Shown: piece after piece, positions 2,119-48,951 of the stretch
How positions within the stretch are numbered: the first letter of the stretch is position 1
Layout of the letters: each line of letters opens with the position of its first letter
NCBI GenBank assembly: GCA_027422505.1
Contig: JAPQWV010000729.1
Coordinates: forward strand, 62,001 to 126,000
DNA from: Craterostigma plantagineum
Taxonomy: Eukaryota > Streptophyta > Magnoliopsida > Lamiales > Linderniaceae
DNA: 64,000 nucleotides
Direction: 5' to 3'
The notes under the pieces: model-generated
What the model was told of the DNA's origin: nothing
What the model saw: only the letters and a program-made list of their open reading frames with translations
Databases searched by the model: none
Made by a program: the position numbers and the translations under genes

Positions 2119-2603
2119 TCAGGCAGGGAGAAATAGCTCAGGGTAGCGATTTCTCATATCATCTTCCCGTTCCCACGTAGCTTCCTCGGTGGATTGATTC
2201 TGCCATAATACTTTGACTAACGGGATTTCTTTATTCCGTAATCGTTTCATGCCGTACATAAGGATTTCCACTGGCTTCTCCTCGTAGCTTAAATCGGGCT
2301 TGAGCTGTTGATGAAGGTTTTCTGTGTTCAACACATGGCTTGGATCGGCAACGTATTTTTGCAGTGTTGAAATATGAAAGACGTCATGTACTTGAGCTAG
2401 CGAATTTGGTAATTCCAACTGATATGCAACTTCGCCAACTTTTCTGAGGATTCGGAACGGTCCTATATAACGTGGGCTCAGTTTGCCTTTCTTTCCGAAC
2501 CGTTTAACTCCTTTCATAGGGGATACCTTCAAAAATACGAAGTCTGCTTGGAATTCCAATGGTCTACGCTTTTGGTCTGCGTAGCTTTTCTGCCTACTTT
2601 GGG
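2119..2603 (-). pseudogene. integrase C-terminus with chromodomain-like tail, out of frame
   Basis: This is the natural continuation of the upstream polyprotein but in another frame. It has the GPY/F-type module (SPRYIGPFRILRKVGEVAYQ) and a terminal stretch (PVEILMYGMKRLRNK...LVKVLW...EATWEREDDM) typical of the chromodomain-like end of Tekay-type integrases. The break lies near 2604, where a single base appears to be missing after the MKT codons. Without that base the long polyprotein runs into an unrelated 30-residue tail. As written, this copy cannot make full-length integrase unless the ribosome shifts or the base is an assembly error. Confidence 0.85.
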
Positions 2604-5600
2604 CGTTTTCATCCTTTCTCGTACCTTTGCAATAGTTTCCGTCATTTCTTGTACTAGGTCGGGACCTAATATCGCTCGTTCTCCAATTTCATCCCAATGT
2701 ATTGGAGATCTACATTTGCATCCATACAGAGCTTCGTATGGAGCCATTCCGATAGTCGCATGATGGCTATTATTATATGAGAACTCAATCAGTGGAAGGT
2801 ACCGGACCCAATTCCCTTTGAAGTCGAGCACGCAGGCTCTCAACATGTCCTCTAGCGTCTGGATGGTTCGTTCGGACTGCCCGTCCGTTTGGGGATGATA
2901 GGCAGTACTGAATGATAATTTGGTACCCATTGCTTTCTGCAAACTCATCCAGAATTTGGATAAGAACCTCGAATCTCGATCGGAAATGATTGAAATTGGA
3001 ACTCCGTGGAGTCGAACTATTTCTTGCACATATAGTTCTGCGTATCGCTCCAATGAGTATGTCGAGTTGATCGGCAAAAAGTGGGCAGATTTGGTCAATC
3101 GATCAACGATTACCCAAATAGCGTCGTGGCCTTTCACTGTCTTCGGCAAGCCAACGACAAAGTCCATCGTAATATGGTCCCATTTCCATTCGGGTACTGG
3201 CAAGGACTGTAATGTTCCTGCCGGTCGTTGGTGTTCTACTTTTATCTGTTGGCATGTTAAACATTGACTAACGAAGGTCGCTATTTCTCTTTTCATCCCT
3301 GGCCACCAATAATTGGTTCGTAAGTCTCTGTACATTTTTGTCGCTCCCGGATGGATTGAATAAGCTGTAGCATGCGCTTCTGTCATAATAATTCTTCGAA
3401 GCTCCGTGTCGTTGGGAACGTATAAACGACCTCTATAATATAAGCTTCCATCTTCTTTCACTCTAAAATCGGACGTCGTTTGCTCCGTTTGTGCGCCTTT
3501 GGTTTTCAGGTAAAATTCGTCTTCTCCTTGCGCCTTTCGAATTCGTTCTAATAGTGAAGGTTGAAGAGTCAACGCTGATAACCGCGCTTCAACCTCGCCC
3601 ATTGATACTATTTCCACTTCGAGTTGTTGTAACTCCGCGCTCACAGATTTTCGGCTTAATGCATCGGCGACCACATTTGCTTTGCCTGGATGATAATTGA
3701 TTACGCAATCATAATCTTTAACAAGCTCTAGCCACCGTCGCTGCCTCATATTTAACTCCTTCTGGGTGAAGAAGTACTTTAAACTCTTGTGATCTGTGAA
3801 TATTTCACAGCGTTCACCGTACAGATAATGCCTCCAGATCTTCAAAGCAAACACAACTGCTGCGAGTTCCAGATCGTGTGTTGGATAATTCTTCTCGTAA
3901 TCCTTTAGCTGTCGCGAAGCGTACGCAACAACCTTTCCATTTTGCATTAGAACGCATCCCAGCCCATTCTTCGATGCGTCACTATATACGGAAAATCCTC
4001 CTGTTCCTGTAGGTATCGTCAGGACTGGGGCCGAAGTGAGTCGTCTTTTTAATTCTTGAAAACTGCGTTCGCACTCATCGCTCCAATGGAATGGAGTATC
4101 TTTTCTAGTCAGCTTCGTCAGCGTTGATGCGATCTTCGAGAAGTCCTTAATAAATTTTCTGTAGTATCCTGCCAGTCCAAGAAAACTTCGTACTTCTGTC
4201 ACATTTGTTGGTTGGGGCCAATTGTTAATAGCCTCTATCTTGCTCGGGTCTACTGAAATTCCTGCTCCCGAAATAATATGTCCAAGAAATGCGACTTGAT
4301 CCAGCCAAAATTCGCATTTCTTGAACTTAGCATACAATTGCTTTTCGCGTAGTATCTCAAGGACGTTCCTCAAATGTTGCTCATGCTCCTCCCTCGTTTT
4401 TGAATAAATAAGGATGTCATCGATGAATACGATGACGAACTTATCCAGGAATGGCTTGAATATGCGGTTCATCAGGTCCATGAATGCTGCCGGCGCATTA
4501 GTTAGCCCAAAAGGCATGACTAAGAACTCGTAGTGCCCGTATCGAGTACTAAAGGCCGACTTCGGAATATCTTCTTCGCGAATCTTCAGCTGATGATATC
4601 CCGATCGCAAATCTATTTTTGAGAACACCGTGGCTCCCTGTAGCTGATCGAACAGATCGTCAATCCTCGGAAGGGGATATTTATTCTTGATAGTGATTTT
4701 ATTTAATTCTCTGTAATCTATGCATAGACTCATTGATCCATCTTTCTTCTTGACAAATAAAACCGGTGCTCCCCAGGGTGAAAAGCTTGGCTGAATGAAT
4801 CCTTTCTGCAGCAACTCGTCCAATTGTTCTTTCAATTCTTTCATTTCTGTTGGAGCTAGACGATATGGAGCTTTTGAGATAGGTGCAGCCCCGGGTACTA
4901 AATCAATCGTGAACTGAATTTCACGATCAGGGGGAAGTCCTGGTAAATCTTCTGGGAACACATCAGGAAATTCTTGTACTATTGGGACTTCTTCTAACTT
5001 TGGGAATGAACGTTCTTCTGAGGTCATTGCAAATACGAGGTATGCTTCACATCCTGCCCTGATCAGGCGTTGTGCCTTCATCGCGGAGATTTTGGGAATT
5101 TTGCTCTTGCTAGTTCCCGTAAAAATGAACGGTTCGTTTCTCTCTGTGCTGAACGTGACTGTCTTATGATTACAATCTATTACAGCCCCATACTTAGACA
5201 GCCAGTCCATTCCTAGAATCACTTCATAATCGTTCATAGGTATAACTATAAGGTCTACGGGTAGTTCTCTATCGTTCACTAGCACTGGGCATTTTCGTAA
5301 AACTAAATTAGTTCGGGTCGAAGCTCCATGTGGAATAGTTACACTATACTCGCAGTCGGATTGTTGAGGCGTAATCCCGAGTCTCGTCACGTACTTAGAT
5401 GATGCAAATGAATGCGTGGCTCCTGAATCTATTAATATGCATGTCGGTATATGATGGATAGATAGGGTACCTGCTACTACCGATGGGTCTGTCTCCGCTT
5501 CTTCTGATGTTATCGTGTAAACTCTGGCAGGTACTGTTGGTGGTCTGGCCTGTACAGTCGTTTGACTCCCAGATGCTTTTCCAGGGCATGCTCTTGCAAA

Positions 5601-6575
5601 ATGGCCCGATTTTCCACACCTAAAGCAGCTAGCATTTTCTGAGAAGCAAACGCCCGTATGTCGTCGGGTGCACTTCGGGCAGATTGATGCCATTGGGGGT
5701 CTACCCTGATTCGGGTTAAACTGCTGAGGCAGTCCGGGTTTGTTCTGAAAATTAGGCCTTGGACCCTTTAAGACAAATTGCTTCTTTTGGCTTCCTCCAC
5801 TCCACTGTGGCCCTTGTACGAACTTCCGTTTTGCTTCTTGGGCTCGGATGATTCTGATTTCCGCTTGCTCAGCCACTAAAGCCCGTTCAGCAACTTGAGC
5901 ATATGTAGCTCCTTGAAGCCCGGCCATATTCACGTCTCTATATAGCTCAGGTTTCAGGCCTTCCAGAAAGCGCTCCACCTTCAATACATCTGTGCTCACC
6001 ATGTGAGCTGCAAACCTAGACAGCTGTTCAAATTTTCTGATGTACTCCGCCACTGTCATCGGGCCCTGGCGTAAGTTAATGAACTCGTTCATTCGTTGGG
6101 CCCGTATTGGAGCGGTGAAGTACTTGCTCCTGAATAATTCTTTGAAACGATCCCAACTCATTGTAAGAGGGTCTTCAATGGCTAAGATGGTGTCCCACCA
6201 ATGACCTGCACTCCCTCGCAACAGGAATGCAGCAGACAGGACCTTCTCTTCTTCGAGAATTCTGCTGTACTGGAACATACTTTCTAAGGTCCTTAGCCAG
6301 TCTTCAGCCGAAGTTGGGTCGATTGCATCCTCGAAAGTTGGAGGATTTAACTTCCGAAATCTTTCTCCTACTATTTCTATTCTTTCGGCTTGGGAAAGCC
6401 CACTGCTTTGCTGTCCGCCAGTGTTCCGCTGTTGAATTAATTCTTGAATCTGAGCGGACTGTTGACGCACTAATTCGGTAAGTTGCATAATCGCCGTGTC
6501 GCGATTATCAGTTGGTATCTCGGGTTCCTTGCCCCGATTGGAACTCCCACTGCTATCACCTCTTGTTCTACCCAT
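2529..6575 (-). CDS. gag-pol polyprotein of the Tekay-like element
   Basis: The 1348-codon frame starts at an ATG 142 bp inside the primer site. In order it shows: a gag domain (residues about 70-250), a CCHC zinc knuckle ([14 protein letters not shown], about 315), an aspartic protease ([10 protein letters not shown], about 380), reverse transcriptase with the catalytic FIDDILIYS block (about 720), RNase H (SDASKNGLG then the TDHKSLKYF block), the integrase HHCC zinc finger (about 1070-1110) and the integrase core (MDFV..., [21 protein letters not shown]). All catalytic motifs look intact, so the only obvious lesion is the frameshift near 2604 that cuts off the integrase C-terminus. In a cell it would make virus-like particles and a cDNA copy; no envelope gene is present. 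Confidence 0.95.
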
Positions 6576-6716
6576 TCTTATTTACCCTGATAGTCCCTAC
6601 GGCCAATAAATTATGCAACGAAAACAAGAATTCACAGTAATAGAAACTTAATAGCAAGGCCGCTTCCGTACTTTTGAGTGTGTGTACATGAACAGTCTAC
6701 AGAAACTTCAACCGAA

Positions 6717-27212: not shown

Positions 27213-27630
27213 GGATTGCTATTCACCGCCCCTTTTTCCTAGTCACCGCCCCCTAAAGGGCTTGAAAATGACCTTTTTGCCCTTCTGAATTAAATTTTTT
27301 ATTTGAAGTCCTTTTCCAGACAACAATTTCATATCGCAATCAAACATTCAAATCAGACTAAAACAAAACAAAAAAAAACGTTCAAATCGCAATAAAACAT
27401 TCAAATCAGACTCAGACAAAATAAAACAAATTAACGTAAAATTTGTTCATACGTATGTGAATTATCGAACTTGATTCGATCACGCACCAAAAAAGTCCCG
27501 ACCGAAAAACAATCTCGTCTTTTCGGGCCGGACCGATAAATAATTTCGGCCACATCAAGGCAGGACCGTGATAATCTTCTTCTGTCTAAATGTTAACTAG
27601 GAAAAAGGGGGCGGTGAATAGCAACTCTCA
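27213..27630. mobile_element. short MULE-type MITE sharing termini with the large MULE at 37866
   Basis: The left end GGATTGCTATTCACCGCCCC...CCTAGTCACCGCCCCCTAAAGG matches the large MULE's left end. The right end is its inverted copy (AACTAGGAAAAAGGGGGCGGTGAATAGCAAC). Nine-bp flanks are similar but imperfect (TCATTTACT and TCATTTATG). The interior has GACCGAAA and AATTTCGG words like the large element's subterminal arrays. It has no coding capacity. The inner part of the right end is replaced by a copy of flanking DNA (see findings). Confidence 0.8.
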
Positions 27631-28094
27631 TCATTTATGATAATCTTCTTCTGTCTAAATGACTTATTGCTATTATGAATACTGCAGATGAGTTGTAGGG
27701 CCCGAAGATTAGTCTCACACCCTATAGTGTGTGGTGCACGGTCCAACGCTCACACGACAAGGAAACGTTGTATTAGACACGAAAAATAGAGACGATTTAG
27801 TTTCGTACCTAAATTATGAGTATTAAAAATGCAATGCAGTTTTTTATTCTTATTTCATAATAAATTAACATTTTTATTTAGAATATACGAAATTAAAACC
27901 GAAATGTGACAAAATTCATATTAGAAATGATATACATATGCATCCAAACTTGCTACTAGAGCAACACCATCAGACACAATGACGTGTCTAATGACTAAAT
28001 AGATATGTAATTTAGTTTTAGACACCCAATTTTCCGTGTCTAATATGTGTTTTCTAGTACTGTCAATTACGTAAGTTGTGGAGATAACGATAAG

Positions 28095-37855: not shown

Positions 37856-37865
37856 TTTTTTTTCT

Positions 37866-38150
37866 GGATTGCTATTCACCGCCCCCTTTTTCCTAGTCAC
37901 CGCCCCCTAAAGGACTGAAAAAGACTATCTTGCCCTTTCTAATTTAAATTTCTTTTTAAAGTCATTTTCCTTACAACTAATCTGATATCGCAATCAGACA
38001 TCCAAATCAGATTAAACATAACAAAAAATTAAAACATTTCAATGAATCGTCTATTTTCGAAATTGAAAGGTCAAAAGAAAGTGTCTACTGGCACGGATGG
38101 TAAGCAAATTCTCGTAAATTTCGTTCGTATAGACGTGAATTCTCGAACTT
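37866..38150 (+). repeat. left terminal inverted repeat of the MULE
   Basis: Pairs with about 45470-45787. The outer 75 bp are well conserved (two ACCGCCCCC blocks, AAAGGACTGAAAAA, TTGCCCTT). The inner part is weaker (TCGTAAATTTCGTTCGTAT against TCGTAAAATTCATTCGTAT). Confidence 0.85.
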
Positions 38151-38169
38151 ACATTGGATTCAATCGGAA

Positions 38170-38350
38170 AATTCGGTCCGACCGAACAATAATTTCGGTC
38201 GGCATAAGAGGCGACCGAACAATAATTTCGGTCACCTCTTGGGCCGACCGAAATGTCTCGTGACCGAAATCGGATTTCGGTTACCTTAGATGTAACCGCA
38301 ATCGTATTTCGGTCGCCTCTTAGGGTAGTCGAAATCCGATTTCGGTCATT
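38170..38350. repeat. left subterminal palindrome array
   Basis: About five degenerate copies of a 20-21 bp palindrome GACCGAAAT...ATTTCGGTC, the first two being GACCGAACAATAATTTCGGT plus C. It mirrors the longer array at the right end. Confidence 0.85.
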
Positions 38351-38798
38351 AAATTTTATTTTTTTTTAATTTTTTTTTTCCAGACTCGGAGATTGTCCCG
38401 GAGGATTCCACGGGTGACGGGATAAACTACAGTGAGCATTTCCGCGAAGGAGGACGATGACCGACGTGGAAGCCATTAACTGGGCGAAGGGCGTCGCTAT
38501 TGGTCTTGGTTTCGAGTTGATAATTTCGTCGCACAAGAAATGTGGAACAAAAAAAATTGATTAGATGTTCTCGCGGAAAACGTTATAGAGGCAAGGAGGA
38601 TGAATTGGAGAGGATGTCCAAGTCTAACAAGTGCAGGTGTCCGTTTGTAGTCATAGCCCAGCAGGATCCAGCTACTAGGGAATGGTACATTCGTACGGGT
38701 GCAACCGATAATTCCATACACAATCACCCTCTGATACAGTATCCCGAGGGACACCGCCAGACGAGTGGACTGAGCAGCCAGGCAAAGAAGGTCGTAGA

Positions 38799-39496
38799 TA
38801 GGGGTGGGCATTCGGGTTCGGGTATTCGGGTTTTACCCGAACCCGATCGGGTTCGGATAGTCCGGGTCGGGTAATTCGGGTTTTTGTCGGGTATCGGGTT
38901 ACCCGATACCCGAATTTATTAATCGGGTCGGGTATCGGGTAGTAATTTATTACCCGAATAACCCGATCGGGTACCCGACAATTTTTTTTTAAAAAAAATT
39001 ATTAATTTTGTACATACATTAAAATATATATAATTACATATTTAGATATCAATATATAACTTGAGTGATGTTAAAGTTTAAATAATATTTCGACTAATTT
39101 CTTATTTTAAGTGTATAATCAACAACTGATATTTTATATCAATGCATATATCATCATAAAAATTTAAAATATATTCTCAAAATTTTATAAATAAACATAT
39201 AAAATATGTATATATTACATTTATTGAAAACAAAATATCCAAATATTGTAAGCGATATTAATATATAACATGGATATTTTAATATTATTGAATTATAATA
39301 TTTTTAGTCACATCTCAATTAAAAAATCGGGTAACCGACTACCCGATGTCGGGTACCCGAACCCGATATATACCCGACAAGCGGGTACCCGCCGTAAATC
39401 GGGTCGGGTTCGGGTAGTGAAAATCTTAATCCGAACCCGAACTACCCGAACCCGAACTACCCGATACCCGACTACCCGACCCGATGCCCACCTCTA
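38799..39496. mobile_element. hAT-type MITE with CGGGTACCCG repeats, 8-bp target duplication
   Basis: 698 bp with ends TAGGGGTGGGCAT and (reversed) TAGAGGTGGGCAT, flanked by perfect GTCGTAGA (38791-38798, 39497-39504). Near both ends are many tandem and inverted CGGGT/ACCCG words; the centre is AT-rich. Removing it with one target copy restores the transposase reading frame locally, so the insertion hit a coding gene. Confidence 0.93.
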
Positions 39497-41206
39497 GTCG
39501 TAGAGGAAATGACTGCTGCCCAAGCGAAACCAGCACATATCCTCTCAGCGATGAGGGCTCGACACAGCGTAGATAACGCGACGACCGACATGTATATAAT
39601 TACAGAGATCGTTTGAAGAGGCAAAATTCTGAGGGTCGAGACGTGGTGAGCCAGTTGATGCACCAGGCGACAGAGTCCGAATATTTTGTTGAAGCGCTGA
39701 GAGACGAAGAGACTAATGCGCTGACACATGTCTTTCTCGCACATCCGGAGTCACTCGCACTGCTGAGGACGTATCCTTATTTTATTGGTATTGACTCGAC
39801 GTACAAGACAAATAGATATAAGATGCCTCTAGTTGAGATTATAGGGATGACTCCCTGTAATCACAACTTTCTCTGTGGGTTTGCCGTCATGGAGGACGAG
39901 ACCGAGAGAAGTTACGGGTGGATGTTGCAGTCAGTCAGGGATATTCTAGGGCCAGATGTCGATCCGTCCGCGATTGTCACTGATCGTGAGTTGGGCCTTC
40001 TTCGACCGCTACATATGGTATTTCCACATTCTCACCATCTTCTGTGCACGTGGCATATTTATAAAGATGTGGAGAACAAAATTTATTGGTTGAGTGGGAG
40101 GAGCAAAAAGACCGCAGCTCACTTCACGCACAAGTCCTGGAAAGCAGTCGTGGAAGCTCCGACTGTTGACGAATACGAGAAGGCAGTGAATGACATGCGT
40201 CTGCGTTGGCTACCCGACTCAGAAATCGTTACTTATGTTGAGCAGACGTGGTTGGTGCATAAGGAGAAGTTCGCCAAAGCTTGGACGAACCAGGTGCTTC
40301 ATTTCGGGAACACCACTACATGTCGTGTGGAGAGTGCTCATAGCGAGCTGAAAGGATGGCTGAACTCCGCCACTGGATCCCTTGACACCGTATGGGTGAA
40401 GGTGCACGAGCAGATTCAGAACCAGTTGATTCGCATAAGAAAGGTAAATACATTATTATTACGTGTCAGTGTTCCTTATGTAATAATTTTGTTGCTGTGG
40501 GCATGCAGACACTTGAGGAGTCCCGGTCGAAACGACCTATTCCGTGTCAGTATTTCCATTCCTGACATTATTATACAGAGTTTCACACCATGCAATATTA
40601 ATTATGGGACATGAGCTGCGACGGGCGAAAGAGTTGTCGAATGAAGTTTACTCCAGGTGAGGATGTGTAGTACGACGTACGCACCAACTACCGTGTGCTT
40701 GCGAGCTTCAGCAATGTGTGGACAACAACTACGGAGTTTCGTTAGAATGCTTGCACGACTTCTGGAGAACACTGACAATCAGCGTCTCACTAGTTCCAGA
40801 TATTTCTGAGCAGGAGCACTTTTACGACCTCGTGCGTGAGGCAGAAACGCGCGATCCCGCCGTTATGCGTGGCCTCCATCGAGTAGTTCACGAACATCTG
40901 TATCCCGAGGCGCAAGAGTGGAATGAGCCAGCTGTTAAGACATCTGTAAAAGGCCGACCAAAGAAAAGAGACTCGACGAAGCGCGATCGAAGTGCTTGGG
41001 AGTACGCACTCCCAAGGGAGGGACGCAGCGCAGGGCGCAGCAGTACAAGCCGTAGCAGCCAGGGTCGTTCCAGTCATGGCCGTACGTCATCTTCGTCTGC
41101 GAAGCGCTCTCGTACTTCTACTACGGATACAGGTACGGCTATCTTTCACCCCTGTATTCATGCGAACATGGATAAATCCTCTAGACTTGTAAGATGCTTT
41201 GTACAG

Positions 41207-41838
41207 GTGAATCCAACTTCTTCCACACCCGCTTGCAGCACCACGTAACATCAGTCATCCATCCGTATATAGTTAGTTATAAGGATGTGGTGGCGGACGG
41301 CAACTGCGGATTTCGCGCTATCGCTTCCCATATTTACAATGACGAGGAGGAATGGGTCACCTTAAGGAATAACGTCGCGAACGAAATCGAGGCCCATTGG
41401 GATCTTTACTCGCCATTGTACTACGGTGATTCACTAGAAATGCAGGTAGATCGCATACGTTGGGAGGGGGGGCCTTGCTTGGCAAACCACTGGATGTTGA
41501 CACCGCGCGATCTGTGGGCTGTGGCGACAATTTGGAACGCTGTAGTTACCCTCTACGGGTACGGCAATGGAAAGACCATCAACATGCATTCTTTCACGAT
41601 ACTGCCACTGCGTGCCCCCCGGACTGCCAATGGATCGAGCCGAACTATCGTCATAGCGCACCTTGGAGACGAGTACCCGCATTATATAAGACTGAATTTA
41701 CGTCTAGACGTTCCTATGCCCGTCTTGCATCCATATTGGAATACGTATCGTGATCGTCGACTTGATGGGTGGGAACTTAGATATCAGAGCAGGATCGAAC
41801 ACTGGTTGCACCTCATGCGTCACAATCATCTATTGTAA
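41207..41838 (+). CDS. OTU-type deubiquitinase domain (3' exon of the MULE gene)
   Basis: The 3' exon is fully open. It contains the OTU Cys box DGNCGFR near its start, a W-rich middle (LANHWMLTPRDLWAVATIWN) and the LGDEYPHYIRL His box. It ends with a 40-residue basic tail and TAA (41836-41838). In the family such domains hydrolyse ubiquitin chains; whether this one is made without the broken transposase is unknown. I give it separately because this half has no visible damage. Confidence 0.7.
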
Positions 41839-41849
41839 TTCCGTTTGTA

Positions 41850-42870
41850 TTATTAATTTTATTTGTCATTATTATTATTTTGTATTATTATTATCATTAC
41901 TATTATTATTATTATTATTATTATTTATTTTTTTTTAAAATATTATTTTGTATGTTATTATTTGGTATTATTATTTTTGTTAATTAGTTATTTTTATTTG
42001 TTTTATTAATATTATTTTGTATTCTTATTATCATTAATATTATTTTTAAGTTATTATTATTACTATTATTATTATTATTATTTTTTAAATAAATTATTTT
42101 GTATGTTATTATTTGGTATTATTATTTTTATTAATTAGTTATTTTTATTTTTTTATTAATATTATTTTGTATTCTTATTATCATTAATATTATTTTTAAG
42201 TTATTATTATTACTATTATTATTATTATTATTTTCTAAAAATATTATTTTGTATGTTATTATTTGGTATTATTTTTTTTATTAATTTTATTTTTTTTATT
42301 AATATTATTTTGTATTCTTATTATCATTAATATTATTTTTAAGTTATTATTATTACTATTATTATTATTATTATTTTTTAAAAATATTATTTTGTATGTT
42401 ATTATTTGGTATTATTTTTTTATTAATTAGTTATTATTATTTTTTTTATTAATATTATTTTGTATTCTTATTATCATTAATATTATTTTTAAGTTATTAT
42501 TATTACTATTATTATTATTATTTTTTAAAAATATTATTTTGTATGTTATTATTTGGTATAATTATTTTTATTAATTAGTTATTTTTATTTTTTTATTAAT
42601 ATTATTTTGTATTCTTATTATCATTAATATTATTTTTAAGTTATTATTATTACTATTATTATTATTTTTTAAAAATATTATTTTGTATGTTATTATTTGG
42701 TATTATTATTTTTATTACTTAGTATTATTATTTTTTTTATTAATATTATTTTGTATTCTTATTATCATTTATATTATTTTTAAGTTATTATTATTACTAT
42801 TATTATTATTATTATTATTATTATTTAAGTTATTATTAGTATGTTATTAGATACTATTATTATTATTATT
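41850..42870. repeat. AT-rich minisatellite, about seven units of roughly 115-125 bp
   Basis: Each unit contains TATTATTTTGTATGTTATTA, TTTGGTATTATT, TTTGTATTCTTATTATCATT and AATATTATTTTTAAGTTATT, followed by a variable (TTA)n run. It lies exactly between the convergent OTU and PMD genes. Confidence 0.92.
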
Positions 42871-42969
42871 TGTTAATAAAGAAAGTACGCGTTCGATAGT
42901 TAGGAATAATATAAATAACAAAAGTACGCGTCCGACACATAAAAGAAACACAAATAAAATACAACCACA

Positions 42970-44988
42970 TCACGGGGCATTGCGCCAGCGGTCGTTCATG
43001 TCGTGCAGCCTGTCTCTGTAGAGCTCACCCTGCTCCTGGTCGTGGAGCTGCAGCTGGGCTAGCATCTCCGTGCTCAAGGCATACATCGAGCTGTACCACT
43101 GCACACGTAATTGATACATATAAAATTTGATTAAACATACAAATTTTTAAAATCCAAATCACATTAAATTACGTACGTAGTCGGTATGGCTGCGCGGGGG
43201 GATGCCGCCCGAAGAGGATCCTGACTCCGACGAAAACAGACGAGGATGAGAATGCCGCTCGTACCAGTCCATGTAACCTTCAACAGTCTCACCAAGGTAC
43301 TCTAAGGTACTCCGGCTGATGTATGACAGGTTGAGGATGTACGCGTAAGGGAACTGCCGCCAAGCAAATTCTGCTGCATCGCCAGAATGGTGCACCTTAT
43401 ACCTCGACGGGTCCGATGGCATATAAGCCCTCCGCGGCGGTGTCATCGGCGGCGGGATGTGCTGCACGTAACCCAGCTGGCGCAACACTCTAGAGGGTAC
43501 GTAGGGCTCCACGATGTCGCGATATCTAACCCAGCCCACGTAAAGAGTCCTCAGGTGCTGCGCCGCTGGATCGGGACCGTACGGCAACCAAGCAACCTGA
43601 TAACAATTTATTTTGTATTATATAAGCGCACATAATATGGAATAATTATTATTAAAATACCTCGCTCGCTGTCATCATGTCTAGCTGACGGCGGATCTCA
43701 ATTAACCGGTGTCCCGTCCGCTCGACCTGAGATACGGACCACATGCGTGATCGTGCTTGGCCAGGCTCCACATGATGGGGTAGACGGTGTGGACGGAAGC
43801 ATGGGAAGTACTCGTAGATCCACGCCTGTAGTAACGACAGGCACCCAGCTAAACCCCTTGCATCCGCTCGGCTTGCGAGCCCAAGCTGGCGATAGAGGTA
43901 AGCAAGAGCGGCCGAACCCCACGAATAACCACTGGCAGATAGCAGGGAGCGATAGAACTCGTGCATGATGTCGGGCTTCACCCGATTCCCGCTCTTGTCG
44001 ACGAACAGGGTCGACCCCAATAGAATCCACAGCCAAGCGATGGCCTGGAATCCCGCCGGCCGACCCTCCCGCATCCTCTGCATCACGTCTTTCGACTCAA
44101 CCGACCCTGCTCTCCAAAATCCCCTCAGGGCGTCTACGTAGACGCCCATAATCTCCCTCGCTGCGATCTGCTGGTCGCCGGCGTCCGGGGTACCCGAAAC
44201 CATCGTCCCGTCGATCGGGATACGGAGGATCTGCTCGACGTCGTGGAGCATGATCGTCATCTCCCCCCACGGCATGTGGAAGGTGTTCGTGTCGGGGTGC
44301 CAGCGCTCCACAAAAGCGCACAGAAGAGGCTGGTCCAAGTGTACGAGCATGGCATCTGCGAGGTGTAAGAGACCTGTGCCATCGATCTCGCTCTGTGTCT
44401 CCGGCGGGAATTGGCAGTACCACTGCTTAAGCTGCCGAAGCACTAACGCCCGCCCCTCGCACTTCAGCACGGGCCTCTCCTCCTCACCCATCCAGATGCG
44501 GGGCGCGATGTGCCCCAAGTAACTAGGGATCACCTCGCCATCTTGCGGACCACCTGACTGTGGCCCCTGCACCCTCCAGGAATCGTCATCTACGACCCTG
44601 GAGCGCTTGCTCCCTATTTTATTTTTTAGGAATACCACATAAATAAATCTAATTTTTGCTACGATAGTTAAGACACGACATCGCAAGTCAGTTTATAATG
44701 AAGAAGGGATGTACCTGAGGAGACCAGTATCCGCTCGTCGTCGGATGACTCAAACGATGCCGCATCGTATGGCACCTCCTCATCCGCATGCGCCTCCTCC
44801 TCTACGTTCGGATCGTATTCCGCATACACGGAATGCGAATCACCCGCTCGCTGCCGCCTCGCCTCCTCCCGTTCCCTAGGAACGGAAGCATCAACGCCGC
44901 GCGCCCTCGTATGACGCTCTCCAGATCCCTCCAACGAGGGGGATCTGCTGCTCCCTCCGAGCAGGGACTTCCCACCCAGCGCCTGCAA
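42970..44988 (-). CDS. plant mobile domain (PMD/MAIN-like) protein of the MULE, 5' end unresolved
   Basis: Exons read 44983(or earlier)-44715, 44613-43661 and 43596-43177, joined in frame by GT-AG introns; a last exon near 43099-42970 is open (EMLAQLQLHDQEQGELYRDR then ...NAP stop), but its junction frame is unclear. Typical PMD blocks: CAFVERWHPDTNTFHMPWGE, MTIMLHDVEQILRIPIDG, PAGFQAIAWLWILLG, YLYRQLGLASRADARGLAG, LLQAWIYEYFP, and PSRVLRQLGYVQHIPPP. An acidic low-complexity region precedes it; no ATG was found, and TTGCAG at 44984-44989 looks like an acceptor, so an upstream exon is likely. PMD proteins of the MAIN/MAIL family act in gene silencing in Arabidopsis; PMD is also known from transposons. 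No stop interrupts the main exons. Confidence 0.85.
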
Positions 44989-45017
44989 TTAGATAATTTT
45001 TTTTTTAAAAAAAGATT

Positions 45018-45424
45018 GGACCGAAATCAAATTTCGGTCGGTCCGTGACCTGACCGAAATCCGATTTCGGTCAGATAACGGCCGACCGAATCGGATTTCG
45101 GTCGGCTAGTTTCAGACCGAAATCAGATTTCGGTCTGTACCAGGACGACCGAACAATTATTTCGGTCGGCCAACTACGACCGAAACATGATTTCGGTCGT
45201 CCAGTGTCGTGACCGAAATCGGATTTCGGTCACGACCCCGGCCGACCGAAATCATGTTTCGGTCGTGACTTGGCCGACCGAAATCTGATTTCGGTCACGA
45301 CCATGGCCGACCGAAATCATGTTTCGGTCGTGACTTGGCCGACCGAAATCGGATTTCGGTCACGACCCCGGCCGATCGAAATCATGTTTCGGTCGTGACT
45401 TGGCCGACCGAAATCTGATTCGGT
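45018..45424. repeat. right subterminal array of 13 GACCGAAAT palindromes
   Basis: Thirteen copies of a 20-22 bp palindrome (GACCGAAATC-G-GATTTCGGTC and variants with CATG or CAATTA centres) at 31-33 bp spacing. Linkers alternate CGTGACTTGGCC and ACGACCCCGGCC. The units are divergent at the array edge near 45018-45180 and more uniform further in. Confidence 0.95.
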
Positions 45425-45469
45425 CGTGCCGTTTTTCGCCCGAGTTCGCGTCCCGTTTTCCGGCCTATT

Positions 45470-45787
45470 TCGACCCGTTTTCGACAATCTATCTAAATAC
45501 GAATGAATTTTACGACAATTTTCATACCAATCGTGAGAGCACCCCCTTTCCCTTTCCCTTTCCTTTTCCTCGTTCCATTGCGATTTGCAAATTTCTCTGT
45601 TTTTTTGTCTGATTTGGATGTGTGATTTGAAAAGTGTTGCGTAGTAAAGGACTTTAAATAGGAATTCTTACTTTTTATTATATTTTAGCTTTTTAAATTA
45701 TTTTAAATAACATAAGGGCAAAATAGTCTTTTTTCAGTCCTTTAGGGGGCGGTAACAAGTAAAAAGGGGGCGGTAAGTAGTAATCCC
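45470..45787 (-). repeat. right terminal inverted repeat of the MULE
   Basis: Inverted partner of 37866-38150; ends ...GGGGGCGGTAAGTAGTAATCCC before the T8CT duplication. Confidence 0.85.
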
Positions 45788-46087
45788 TTTTTTTTCTATT
45801 GATAGTTATTTTATGGCAGATCAAAATACGGTTTATTCTAGATTTCTAGGCCATGAGCTATGATAAAAGAGTACGGATATTCCATAAACCAATTTTTCAT
45901 ACTATACAATTAAATTTAAGATTTTAGAATTTATCTATAAACATTGAATCACAAATAGTTTATATCGAAAATAATATAGTATCTATATATGTTAACTCTT
46001 AAGAGCATAAAAATACTATTGAGTAAAGAAATATCTTCAGAACCCTCACATTTGCAAAACCTTCACCACAATCCACAATCTCATTTC

Positions 46088-48951
46088 ATGGCCGCTTCGA
46101 TAGCATCGATGATGTCGCTAGACACGGCGGCAACTTTCCTCGGATTAGCCAAACGCCACTCTCCTCAGCTGCCCATTAGGCTATTCTCGGCGAATTTTCA
46201 CGGCGGCAGGTCATCAAATGTTCTTGTTGCTCGGACGAGAAAATTCTCCGCCGTTTCCGATAATTCGGTGAAATTGAGAATGGCCGGCATGGAGCCGCAG
46301 AGACGGAGGTTTTCCAGGAGTTTGACTGTCAGAGCCGCCACGACTTCTTCCCCCGACACCGAGGAGTCCGATTTGATGACCAAAATTCCGCCTGACGATA
46401 GAATTCCGGCGACTATTATTACGGGCTTCTTGGGTTCTGGGAAGGTAACTTCTTTGAAGAATTTTGTCGATTGGGTTTTGTTTTTGGTGTGTTAGAATGG
46501 AGTGGAGGAGATTTCATTCAAATGATTTCTGTCTTTGTTGCTTGCTTGCTTGCTTGGTCATTTGGTGGCCTTTCTGAATTTCTGTTCGAAAAGGCGTAAC
46601 GTGGATGAATTGGGCCATAACAAGCATGCAACAAGAAATGAAATCCATTTGATGTCTTTCAAATGCATTTTGTTTTTGTTGTTGCTTGATTGGTTATGTC
46701 TAAACTCTAAATTCATGTGGTCTTTTTAAATTGCTGTTCGAAAATGTGTAACGTGGATGTATTAGGAATCATGAGACTTTCGACTTTGTTTATTCACTTG
46801 TGGGCTGGTGCCAAAAGTGGTAAAGATTTGATTTTTAATTCAATGTCACAGTGGTATATACATTTCCTGTTGTTACTGCCAATCTTGTTAATAGAAAATA
46901 ACGAGGTGAATGCGTTATTGTTCGATTGTGAGAGTGATAAAATATGTGATTGTATGGGATGGAATTATCATTCTTCAAGCTGTTCTTAGCATCATATGAG
47001 TATTTAATTAGACATTCTATTCATTTTGTATGGATGACTAAAATTTCATGATTTTAACCCCAAATGTTTTTTCACATATTGCTCGATTCCATGGCAGACA
47101 ACCTTGTTGAACCACATCTTAACCGCCAACCACGGAAAACGCATTGCTGTTATCGAAAACGAGGTATGAGGCTTATCATAAAATGGTACTCAAACTTCGT
47201 ATGAATCGAAATATGTTCTAATGATTCATATATTTACTGTTTAGTATGGCGAGGTCGACATCGATGGCTCGCTAGTTGCTGCAAAAGCTGCTGGCGCTGA
47301 GGACATAGTGATGCTAAACAATGGCTGTCTTTGCTGCACTGTGAGGGGCGATTTAGTGAGAATGATCTCAGAACTCGTTAGTCGAAAGAAAGGAAAGTTC
47401 GATCATATTGTTATTGAAACTACAGGTAAAAAAACGTATGCTTCCTTTCTTTTCTAATGGGGTCAGAGTCAAGCTAATCTTGGATTTTCACAGTTGTCTA
47501 AGCATTCTTAATCACTTGGGTATTAATTATTACAGGGCTAGCAAATCCTGCACCGATTATTCAGACATTTTACGCCGAGGATCAGATTTTTAACGATGTA
47601 AAACTCGACGGAGTGGTAACGCTTGTCGATGCTAAGCATGTCGGTTTGCACATCGACGAAGTTAAGCCTGAAGGAGTTGTCAATGAAGCTGTTGAACAGA
47701 TAGCTTACGCTGATAGGATTATAGTAAACAAGGCAAGAATTTCGATTTTGTTAAGCGTTTTTTGTTTGCCCGAATTATTACATATCTCCCTTTTTCTTCC
47801 CATGGTTCTTTTGTTTCACTGTTTTTGGACTAATTTGAAATTTATTTCATAAAACAGACAGATCTTGTTAAGGAAAGTGACGTAGGTTCAGTGGTCGAGC
47901 GGATAAGGGTATGTATTTTTTTGTCGTCTTTTTTCTTATTGCAAAGGTGGAAATCTTTTTTGGGTCATTTTTTTATTTCTCTGTAATCGCAGAGCATAAA
48001 TCGTATGGCTCAACTTAAGCGAACGCAGTATGGAAATGTCGATCTAGACTATGTTCTTGGCATTGGAGGCTTCGACTTGGAAAGGTATATAGCATAATAA
48101 TCTTCCCTAAATCTGATTGCTATTTCTTGATTGCTCGTTTTAGAACATCAAATTCTTTTGCAAAAGCACGACGAATCTTTTCCTTGTTACACTACAGAAT
48201 CGATAGCGCCGTCGATGCTGACCACTCAGACGATCACAGCCACGAACACGAACACGACCATGAAAATTGCAACCATGAGCACGAGCATGACCATAAACAC
48301 GGTATACTATTTATATTACATTGCAAATTTTTAACCATTTTTGCAAGAATCTGTTTTTAACCGTGTAAGAGAATGATTCCTCGAAATTTTATTGCAGACC
48401 ATGATCATCATCATGCCCATGATCATCACCATGGACATGACCATACGCATGACCCAGGCGTTTCTTCGATCAGTATAGTATGCGAAGGGACTTTGGATCT
48501 TGAAAAGGTTACGCCTTTTTTACTGATTATTATTGCTTGCCCTTATCCCAATGTGATAGAGTGAAAAAAAAGGAAAAAAAAAAGTTCTTATCTTTCGCCA
48601 TTATTTTTTAAAAAAAATAAATTATACATCAGGCGAACATGTGGTTGGGAAACTTGCTGATGGAAAAGAGCGAAGATATATATAGAATGAAGGGCCTTAT
48701 TTCTGTCGATGGCATGGACGAAAGATTCGTATTTCAGGTAAAGCTTCGATGTTTTTAAGTTGTACTTTGCAAAAATATGATTAAATCTGATTTCGTTTGC
48801 CTTAACAATGAAGGGAGTGCACGATATATTCCAAGGCTCGCCCGATAGACTTTGGGGCTCAGACGAACCGAGGATTAACAAGCTCGTATTCATTGGAAAG
48901 AACCTTAATGGTAAGGAAATTGAGGATGGCTTCAAGGCTTGTATCTTGTAA
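46088..48951 (+). CDS. plastid CobW/ZNG-type GTPase, PTAC17-like
   Basis: Ten exons give 466 residues: 46088-46444, 47098-47163, 47245-47425, 47536-47732, 47858-47908, 47993-48084, 48198-48301, 48398-48507, 48633-48737, 48814-48951. Intron 4 uses a GC donor (AAG/GCAAGA); the others are GT-AG. The first 85-90 residues are rich in Ser, Arg and Ala with few acids, a chloroplast transit peptide. The G domain has GFLGSGKTT (113-121, split by intron 1), ENEYGEVDIDG, the metal-binding CxCC motif NGCLCCTVRGD (C169, C171, C172), IETTGLANP and NKTD (266-269). A His-rich linker (about 316-365, HEHEHDHEN and HDHHHAHDHHHGHDH) probably binds metal. The CobW_C domain ends GFKACIL. The family are metal chaperone GTPases; a close Arabidopsis relative is PTAC17. 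An in-frame upstream ATG exists at 45989, but the transit peptide starts best at 46088. Confidence 0.94.

What the first reader, a model, noticed from the sequence alone, without database searches (positions are those of the whole stretch)
37866..45787. A MULE that carries both an OTU protease fusion and a plant-mobile-domain gene
One element bounded by MULE ends and a 10-bp duplication holds a transposase-OTU gene and a convergent PMD gene. OTU domains cut ubiquitin chains and PMD proteins are linked to silencing, so both cargo genes could counter host control of the transposon. Seen: the domains, strands and element ends. Known: some MULEs carry ULP1 proteases (Kaonashi), and PMD occurs in transposons and in MAIN/MAIL1. 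The joint OTU plus PMD pairing as a module is what I do not know to be described.
Basis: partly seen in the sequence, partly recalled or inferred. Interest (0 to 1): 0.9.

Follow-up and report, generated by a model that had tools for sequence, protein, structure and literature searches.

The report
Plant MULE with OTU and PMD
This is a plant jumping gene of the Mutator kind whose transposase gene ends in a predicted ubiquitin-cutting domain and which also carries, in the opposite direction, a full plant-mobile-domain gene; each half has known precedents, and whether the pair recurs as a module could not be tested here.

Summary
A MULE spans 37866-45787, with inverted ends and a 10-of-10 duplication (low in complexity). 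It holds a MULE-transposase/OTU gene (+) and a convergent PMD gene (-). My PMD model (5 exons, 606 codons, GT-AG introns, no transcript behind it) starts at an ATG inside the 3' inverted repeat. An aligned ATG and donor in the 5' repeat open the transposase gene. So PMD looks like a built-in second gene rather than a one-off nesting. In this copy the transposase appears broken (hAT-like insertion, three apparent frame changes, one stop), while PMD and the OTU exon are open; that contrast is not significant for PMD alone. Not in the finding: both repeats carry 33-bp palindrome arrays within modelled intron 1, and a 417-bp non-autonomous relative lies at 27213-27629. Antisense PMD is already tabulated for several plant MULE groups, and MULE-borne PMD has been proposed as anti-silencing. 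OTU-tailed transposases are known from Ginger1, and OTU from a Hydra MULE. Ten capped searches of the held papers listed none that I could see pairing OTU with PMD in a plant MULE. Plant databases could not be searched, so recurrence, selection and function stay untested. Verdict: real, a modest new variant of a known kind.

The parts
37856..37865 (.). target-site duplication, left copy (TTTTTTTTCT)
   Evidence: 10 of 10 identical to 45788-45797
37866..38348 (+). 5' terminal inverted repeat region: outer 57-bp core, exon 1 of the transposase gene, palindrome array
   Evidence: 51 of 57 core positions identical; gapped local alignment to the 3' end over about 480 bp
38042..38099 (+). modelled exon 1 of the transposase-OTU gene (ATG inside the terminal repeat, donor GTAAGC)
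   Evidence: in frame with exon 2 at 38384, open for 44 codons to the first apparent lesion; aligns with the PMD exon 1 region, 48 of 83 columns, score 53 against a shuffle maximum of 42 in 500
38180..38347 (.). 5' palindrome array, 5 cores of GACCGAA..TTCGGTC type
38384..40443 (+). transposase coding region with MULE (PF10551) domain; apparently broken by two frame changes, a hAT-like insertion and a further frame change
   Evidence: Pfam E 9.3e-26 for 39577-40611; frames read by eye; the pieces before 39577 have no Pfam match
38799..39496 (.). nested 698-bp hAT-like insertion (ends TAGGGGTGGGCA / TGCCCACCTCTA) with 8-bp duplication GTCGTAGA
   Evidence: the hAT label is recalled
40661..41132 (+). 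SWIM-like CxC..CxH motif and basic linker exon; an in-frame TGA at 40658-40660 precedes it in this copy
   Evidence: no Pfam match for this exon
41207..41838 (+). OTU cysteine-protease-like exon with DGNC motif, open to its stop
   Evidence: Pfam 21.0 bits, just under cut-off; PDB OTU hits; intron join
41901..42870 (.). AT-rich minisatellite, 150-bp unit x 6.5, between the convergent genes
42970..45578 (-). PMD gene model, 5 exons: 45578-45528, 44982-44715, 44613-43661, 43596-43177, 43098-42970; 606 aa (a second possible donor for exon 4 gives 589 aa with another C-terminus)
   Evidence: introns GT-AG, no stop; PMD 205.9 bits
45019..45426 (.). 3' palindrome array, 33-bp period x 12.7, in modelled intron 1 of the PMD gene
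   Evidence: RNA fold of 45010-45430 (-) z -22.0
45276..45787 (-). 3' terminal inverted repeat region
45788..45797 (.). target-site duplication, right copy
27213..27629 (+). 417-bp non-autonomous relative with the same ends; duplication 8 of 10
   Evidence: 85.5% over 166 columns to the 5' end, 29 of 29 bp at the 3' end

Best explanation
It is a decayed copy of an originally autonomous plant MULE with two convergent genes, each started from its own terminal repeat. The plus gene made a DDE transposase with a SWIM-like motif, a basic linker and a C-terminal OTU domain. The minus gene made a PMD protein of about 606 aa. Shown here: ends, duplication, domains, in-frame gene models, aligned first exons in the terminal repeats, arrays, apparent lesions. 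Inferred: the OTU domain travels with the transposase and trims ubiquitin from the transposase itself or from chromatin or repair proteins at the transposition site. The PMD protein, which shares its domain with the MAIN/MAIL1 silencing factors, acts in trans on expression of the element by competing with or diverting the host PMD complex. The palindromes are binding sites for one of these proteins or a source of hairpin RNA.
For: Anatomy. The two gene models begin in aligned terminal-repeat sequence with aligned ATG and donor, so PMD looks like part of the element's design. PMD recurs in plant MULE groups 42 and 45-50, antisense stated for 42 and 47-50, which suggests retention (PMC6446971). 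MAIL1/MAIN act in TE silencing, and MULE-borne PMD was proposed as anti-silencing (PMC5418596 passages). Some host PMD proteins are fused to protease domains (PMC7156037 passages). OTU at a transposase C-terminus recurs in Ginger1, where a role at transposition or repair was proposed (PMC2836005 passages). Arrays of short motifs in non-coding DNA are what VANC anti-silencing proteins bind in VANDAL elements (PMC5735166 passages): an analogy only.
Against: One gene-bearing copy only. The OTU match is just under the Pfam cut-off and no alignment placed its catalytic His; the fold prediction failed (pLDDT 30.6). No Pfam match for a SWIM or FAR1 domain. The two aligned first exons encode different peptides and end in different codon phases, so their homology rests on DNA alone. 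No expression, methylation, binding or selection data. Lesions sparing the PMD gene are compatible with chance (p 0.12 for 4, 0.07 for 5).
Confidence: 0.5

Rival explanations
1. PMD is a transposition or transcription helper of the element (like a second structural gene of MuDR), with no role against silencing; the OTU domain likewise only stabilises the transposase.
For: Convergent gene pair started in the terminal repeats resembles the two-gene MuDR layout (recalled); antisense PMD is common in plant MULEs; MAIN/MAIL1 are also required for activation of several host genes (PMC7156037 passages).
Against: The studied PMD proteins MAIN/MAIL1 affect TE silencing.
Confidence: 0.3
2. The PMD or OTU part is a recent host-gene capture, Pack-MULE style, without function for the element.
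For: MULEs capture host sequences; capture of genic PMD-C by MULEs has been inferred twice (PMC5418596 passages); this copy appears broken.
Against: PMD is full length (profile 4-346 of 347), in frame over 606 codons, and its first exon is terminal-repeat sequence aligned with that of the transposase gene; OTU is joined in frame to the transposase linker exon.
Confidence: 0.12
3. In this copy the PMD gene is being kept or domesticated by the host while the transposase decays.
For: PMD gene without lesion, transposase with four apparent small lesions and one insertion.
Against: Lesion placement p 0.12 or 0.07; no orthologue or expression data.
Confidence: 0.08

Closest known systems
Plant MULE groups with antisense PMD (Dupeyron 2019 groups 42, 47-50; MULE-Solanaceae_1, MULE-Monocots, MDR, MUDRAVI2, MUDR)
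   Same: MULE transposase, about 9-10 bp duplication where given, PMD gene often antisense, long terminal repeats in several groups
   Different: No OTU listed in that table for any plant group; the table has an 'Ovarian Tumour Gene' only for MuDR-6_HM of a cnidarian. Group 42 lists an 'unknown ORF' beside antisense PMD
Kaonashi / ULP1-carrying MULEs
   Different: OTU here, no Ulp1 match
Ginger1 transposons
   Same: DDE transposase with C-terminal OTU or Ulp1 domain
   Different: integrase-like transposase and CCGG/CCGT duplications there; MULE domain and 10-bp duplication here; no PMD mentioned there in the passages read
VANDAL elements with VANC
   Same: extra gene shown to counter silencing; motif arrays in non-coding DNA
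   Different: VANC is another protein; no binding shown here
MAIN / MAIL1 and TE-borne PMDs
   Same: PMD domain
   Different: clade (PMD-A, B or C) not determined here

Membership tests
MULE superfamily | MULE transposase domain | tested here: met
   PF10551 90.6 bits against a cut-off of 27.6
MULE superfamily | inverted ends and a duplication of about 9-11 bp | tested here: met
   51 of 57; 10 of 10
MULE superfamily | zinc finger (SWIM) in the transposase | tested here: inconclusive
   CxC..CxH pattern by eye; no Pfam match at E up to 5
PMD-carrying plant MULE groups | PMD gene, antisense to transposase | tested here: met
PMD-carrying plant MULE groups | transposase falls in groups 42 or 45-50 by phylogeny | not testable with these tools
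OTU protease | domain match | tested here: inconclusive
   Pfam 21.0 bits, cut-off 23.3; PDB OTUD1 E 2.5e-5
OTU protease | D-G-N-C catalytic cysteine motif | tested here: met
   DGNCGF, aligned to DGNC of 4bop, 6dx2 and 6dwx
OTU protease | catalytic histidine and OTU fold | tested here: inconclusive
   a His-Tyr pair near the C-terminus by eye; model pLDDT 30.6
Kaonashi (ULP1 MULE) | Ulp1 protease domain | tested here: not met
   no Ulp1 family among matches of 7 pieces at E up to 1
Ginger1 | Gypsy-like integrase core and CCGG/CCGT duplication | tested here: not met
   no rve match in 7 pieces; 10-bp duplication
Pack-MULE | host gene fragment without transposase | tested here: not met
   transposase domain present, PMD complete
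Functional OTU+PMD module | both genes recur together and are under selection | not testable with these tools
   The genome search unanswered (15 tries); the search for homologous proteins off

The most novel reading that the evidence does not exclude
A lineage of plant MULEs stably pairs a deubiquitinase-tailed transposase with a PMD protein driven from the terminal repeat, with the palindrome arrays as their DNA targets: a two-pronged, element-specific system that both lifts PMD-dependent silencing and protects the transposition complex from ubiquitin-based control.
Probability: 0.17. Interest if true: 0.75.

Novelty: new variant of a known kind. Interest (0 to 1): 0.42.

Why it matters
If the pair recurs, MULEs would offer a natural test of what PMD proteins do to silencing, an open question for MAIN/MAIL1: the element supplies a PMD, a candidate target array and a predicted deubiquitinase in one unit. 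If it does not recur, it is one more MULE with accessory domains already known singly.

Tried and rejected
Nesting of an unrelated PMD gene: judged unlikely because PMD exon 1 lies in the terminal repeat and aligns with exon 1 of the transposase gene.

Selective retention of PMD in this copy: not supported (p 0.12 for 4 lesions, 0.07 for 5). Taking PMD and OTU exon together gives 0.039 or 0.018, but that grouping was made after seeing the data and I do not rely on it. The coding lengths behind these figures use exon limits read by eye for 40444-40660, and PMD was entered one base too long (1822 for 1821).

OTU fold by structure prediction: single-sequence model useless (pLDDT 30.6), so no fold search was made. 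Solved-structure search with PMD exon 3 gave two weak matches to designed proteins.

Relatives in other collections: viral contigs with PMD, OTU and transposase pieces and prokaryote genomes with the transposase piece gave no relative, as expected for a plant element. NCBIfam adds weak IS256-type and ISH6-type similarity of the transposase, far under the cut-offs, and a spurious lectin match.

Literature: 10 of 10 searches used. Lists were capped: 20 of 1,232 papers, 20 of 674, 10 of 47,902, 15 of 677, 15 of 49, 15 of 20 in 71; whole lists in 9, 33, 37, 74. No listed title or abstract start showed OTU and PMD in one plant MULE. Most listed papers were not opened. I saw passages of 12 papers, and also the abstract and section 6 of PMC6446971. 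(rice dispensable genome) and searches gave nothing on the pairing. Babu 2006, the first description of PMD with MULEs, is not held. The library misses most subscription journals. Recalled, not tested: plant proteins with MULE plus OTU domains exist in public databases under uninformative names, so the fusion itself may be common.
Full report
What is there. The window is plant DNA by inference, from retrotransposon polyproteins (RVT_1 and RVT_2 types), an inorganic H+ pyrophosphatase and a DIOX_N gene and the PMD itself. The element runs from 37866 to 45787. Its outer 57 bp match in inverted orientation at 51 of 57 positions. A gapped alignment continues to about 482 bp of the 5' end and 512 bp of the 3' end, with many gaps and no shuffle control. 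The flanks carry the same 10 bases TTTTTTTTCT; that duplication is low in complexity, but the ends are clear.

Plus-strand gene. A MULE transposase domain (PF10551, E 9.3e-26) lies in 39577-40611. Downstream are a CxC..CxH motif by eye, a basic linker, a GT-AG intron at 41133-41206 and an OTU-like exon at 41207-41838; linker and OTU join in frame. OTU scores 21.0 bits against a Pfam cut-off of 23.3. Solved OTU proteins match it: OTUD1 E 2.5e-5, two entries named RNA-dependent RNA polymerase (6dx2 E 5.9e-5, 6dwx E 2.4e-4; viral OTU domains, recalled) and OTUD5 E 0.0017; the three alignments shown cover the DGNC motif. I take it as an OTU domain; activity is not shown.

State of that gene. In this copy the reading frame appears broken: two frame changes before and one after a 698-bp hAT-like insertion (38799-39496, duplication GTCGTAGA), and an in-frame TGA at 40658-40660 before the SWIM-like exon. 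These lesions were read by eye from frame continuity, without an intact relative; the pieces upstream of the MULE domain have no Pfam match, and an undetected intron could explain one or another of them. The OTU exon is open; shuffles of its bases were open in 0 of 4000.

Minus-strand gene. The PMD gene fits 5 exons with GT-AG introns, 606 aa, no stop; a second possible donor of exon 4 would give 589 aa. The PMD match is 205.9 bits over positions 4-346 of 347. Base shuffles of exon 3 were open in 0 of 4000, of exon 2 in 3.9% and of exon 4 in 0.7%, so the shorter exons alone are weaker evidence. The model has no transcript behind it.

Built-in or cargo. The PMD ATG (45578) and first donor lie in the 3' terminal repeat. 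The 5' repeat has an aligned ATG (38042) and donor; its exon joins exon 2 of the transposase gene in frame, open for 44 codons to the first apparent lesion. The two regions are identical at 48 of 83 columns and score 53 against a maximum of 42 in 500 base shuffles. The encoded peptides differ and the donors sit in different codon phases, so the link is at DNA level. Still, a PMD gene whose first exon is terminal-repeat sequence is hard to explain by one-off nesting.

Palindrome arrays. GACCGAAATCNGATTTCGGTC with up to 3 mismatches occurs 13 times, 13 of 13 in this element's ends; mean 0.00 in 100 shuffles. A looser pattern gives 16 of 16 in the ends, 5 left and 11 right, against a mean of 0.03 and maximum of 1 in 100 base shuffles. 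They fall in modelled intron 1 of both genes. As RNA the right array folds at -278.8 kcal/mol, z -22.0; the left was not folded. A 417-bp relative with the same ends lies at 27213-27629 and has degenerate forms of the palindrome by eye, so the arrays seem to belong to the family's ends. It is too short for either gene. Searched with the transposase, OTU and PMD proteins, the rest of the window has no relative (best E 0.52).

How it may work. Both host-directed roles are inference. MAIN/MAIL1 act in TE silencing, and MULE-borne PMD was proposed as an anti-silencing factor (PMC5418596 passages; PMC8616336 passages). A C-terminal OTU or Ulp1 on transposases was proposed to act in transposition or repair (PMC2836005 passages). 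I favour an OTU acting locally with the transposase and a PMD acting in trans on expression of the element; a simple helper role for PMD is the main rival.

What is known. Dupeyron 2019 (PMC6446971; abstract, section 6 with Table 1, and passages) lists PMD in plant groups 42 and 45-50, antisense stated for 42 and 47-50, and an ovarian-tumour gene only for MuDR-6_HM of a cnidarian. The Ginger paper cites Ulp1 in plant MULEs and OTU in animal Helitrons. PMD in Gypsy elements and MULEs is also stated in PMC9289625 (passages), and fusion of some host PMDs to proteases in PMC7156037 (passages). Ten capped searches of the held library listed no paper that I could see pairing OTU with PMD in a plant MULE; this is weak evidence of absence. 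From recall, MULE plus OTU proteins are present in plant databases.

What could not be done. So recurrence, clade, dN/dS and expression are open. The finding is real and cleanly built, with modest novelty.

Noticed in passing
27213-27629: 417-bp non-autonomous relative with the element's ends; a 23-bp stretch at 27570 near its 3' end is repeated at 27639, at its right flank, suggesting a complex origin of its 3' end.
   Followed up: partly
38180-38347 and 45019-45426: 33-bp palindrome arrays in both terminal repeats, in modelled intron 1 of both genes; the right one has very strong hairpin potential.
   Followed up: partly
41901-42870: AT-rich minisatellite (150 bp x 6.5) between the two convergent genes.
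   Followed up: no
38799-39496: hAT-like insertion rich in CGGGTA-type repeats inside the transposase, with 8-bp duplication.
   Followed up: partly
45980-46495: The element sits about 0.2-0.3 kb upstream of the first ATGs of an ORF resembling a CobW-type GTPase (recalled from its GFLGSGK motif; no Pfam match at 1e-4).
   Followed up: no
2529-6581: Ty3/gypsy-type polyprotein with one long open frame of 1350 codons.
   Followed up: no
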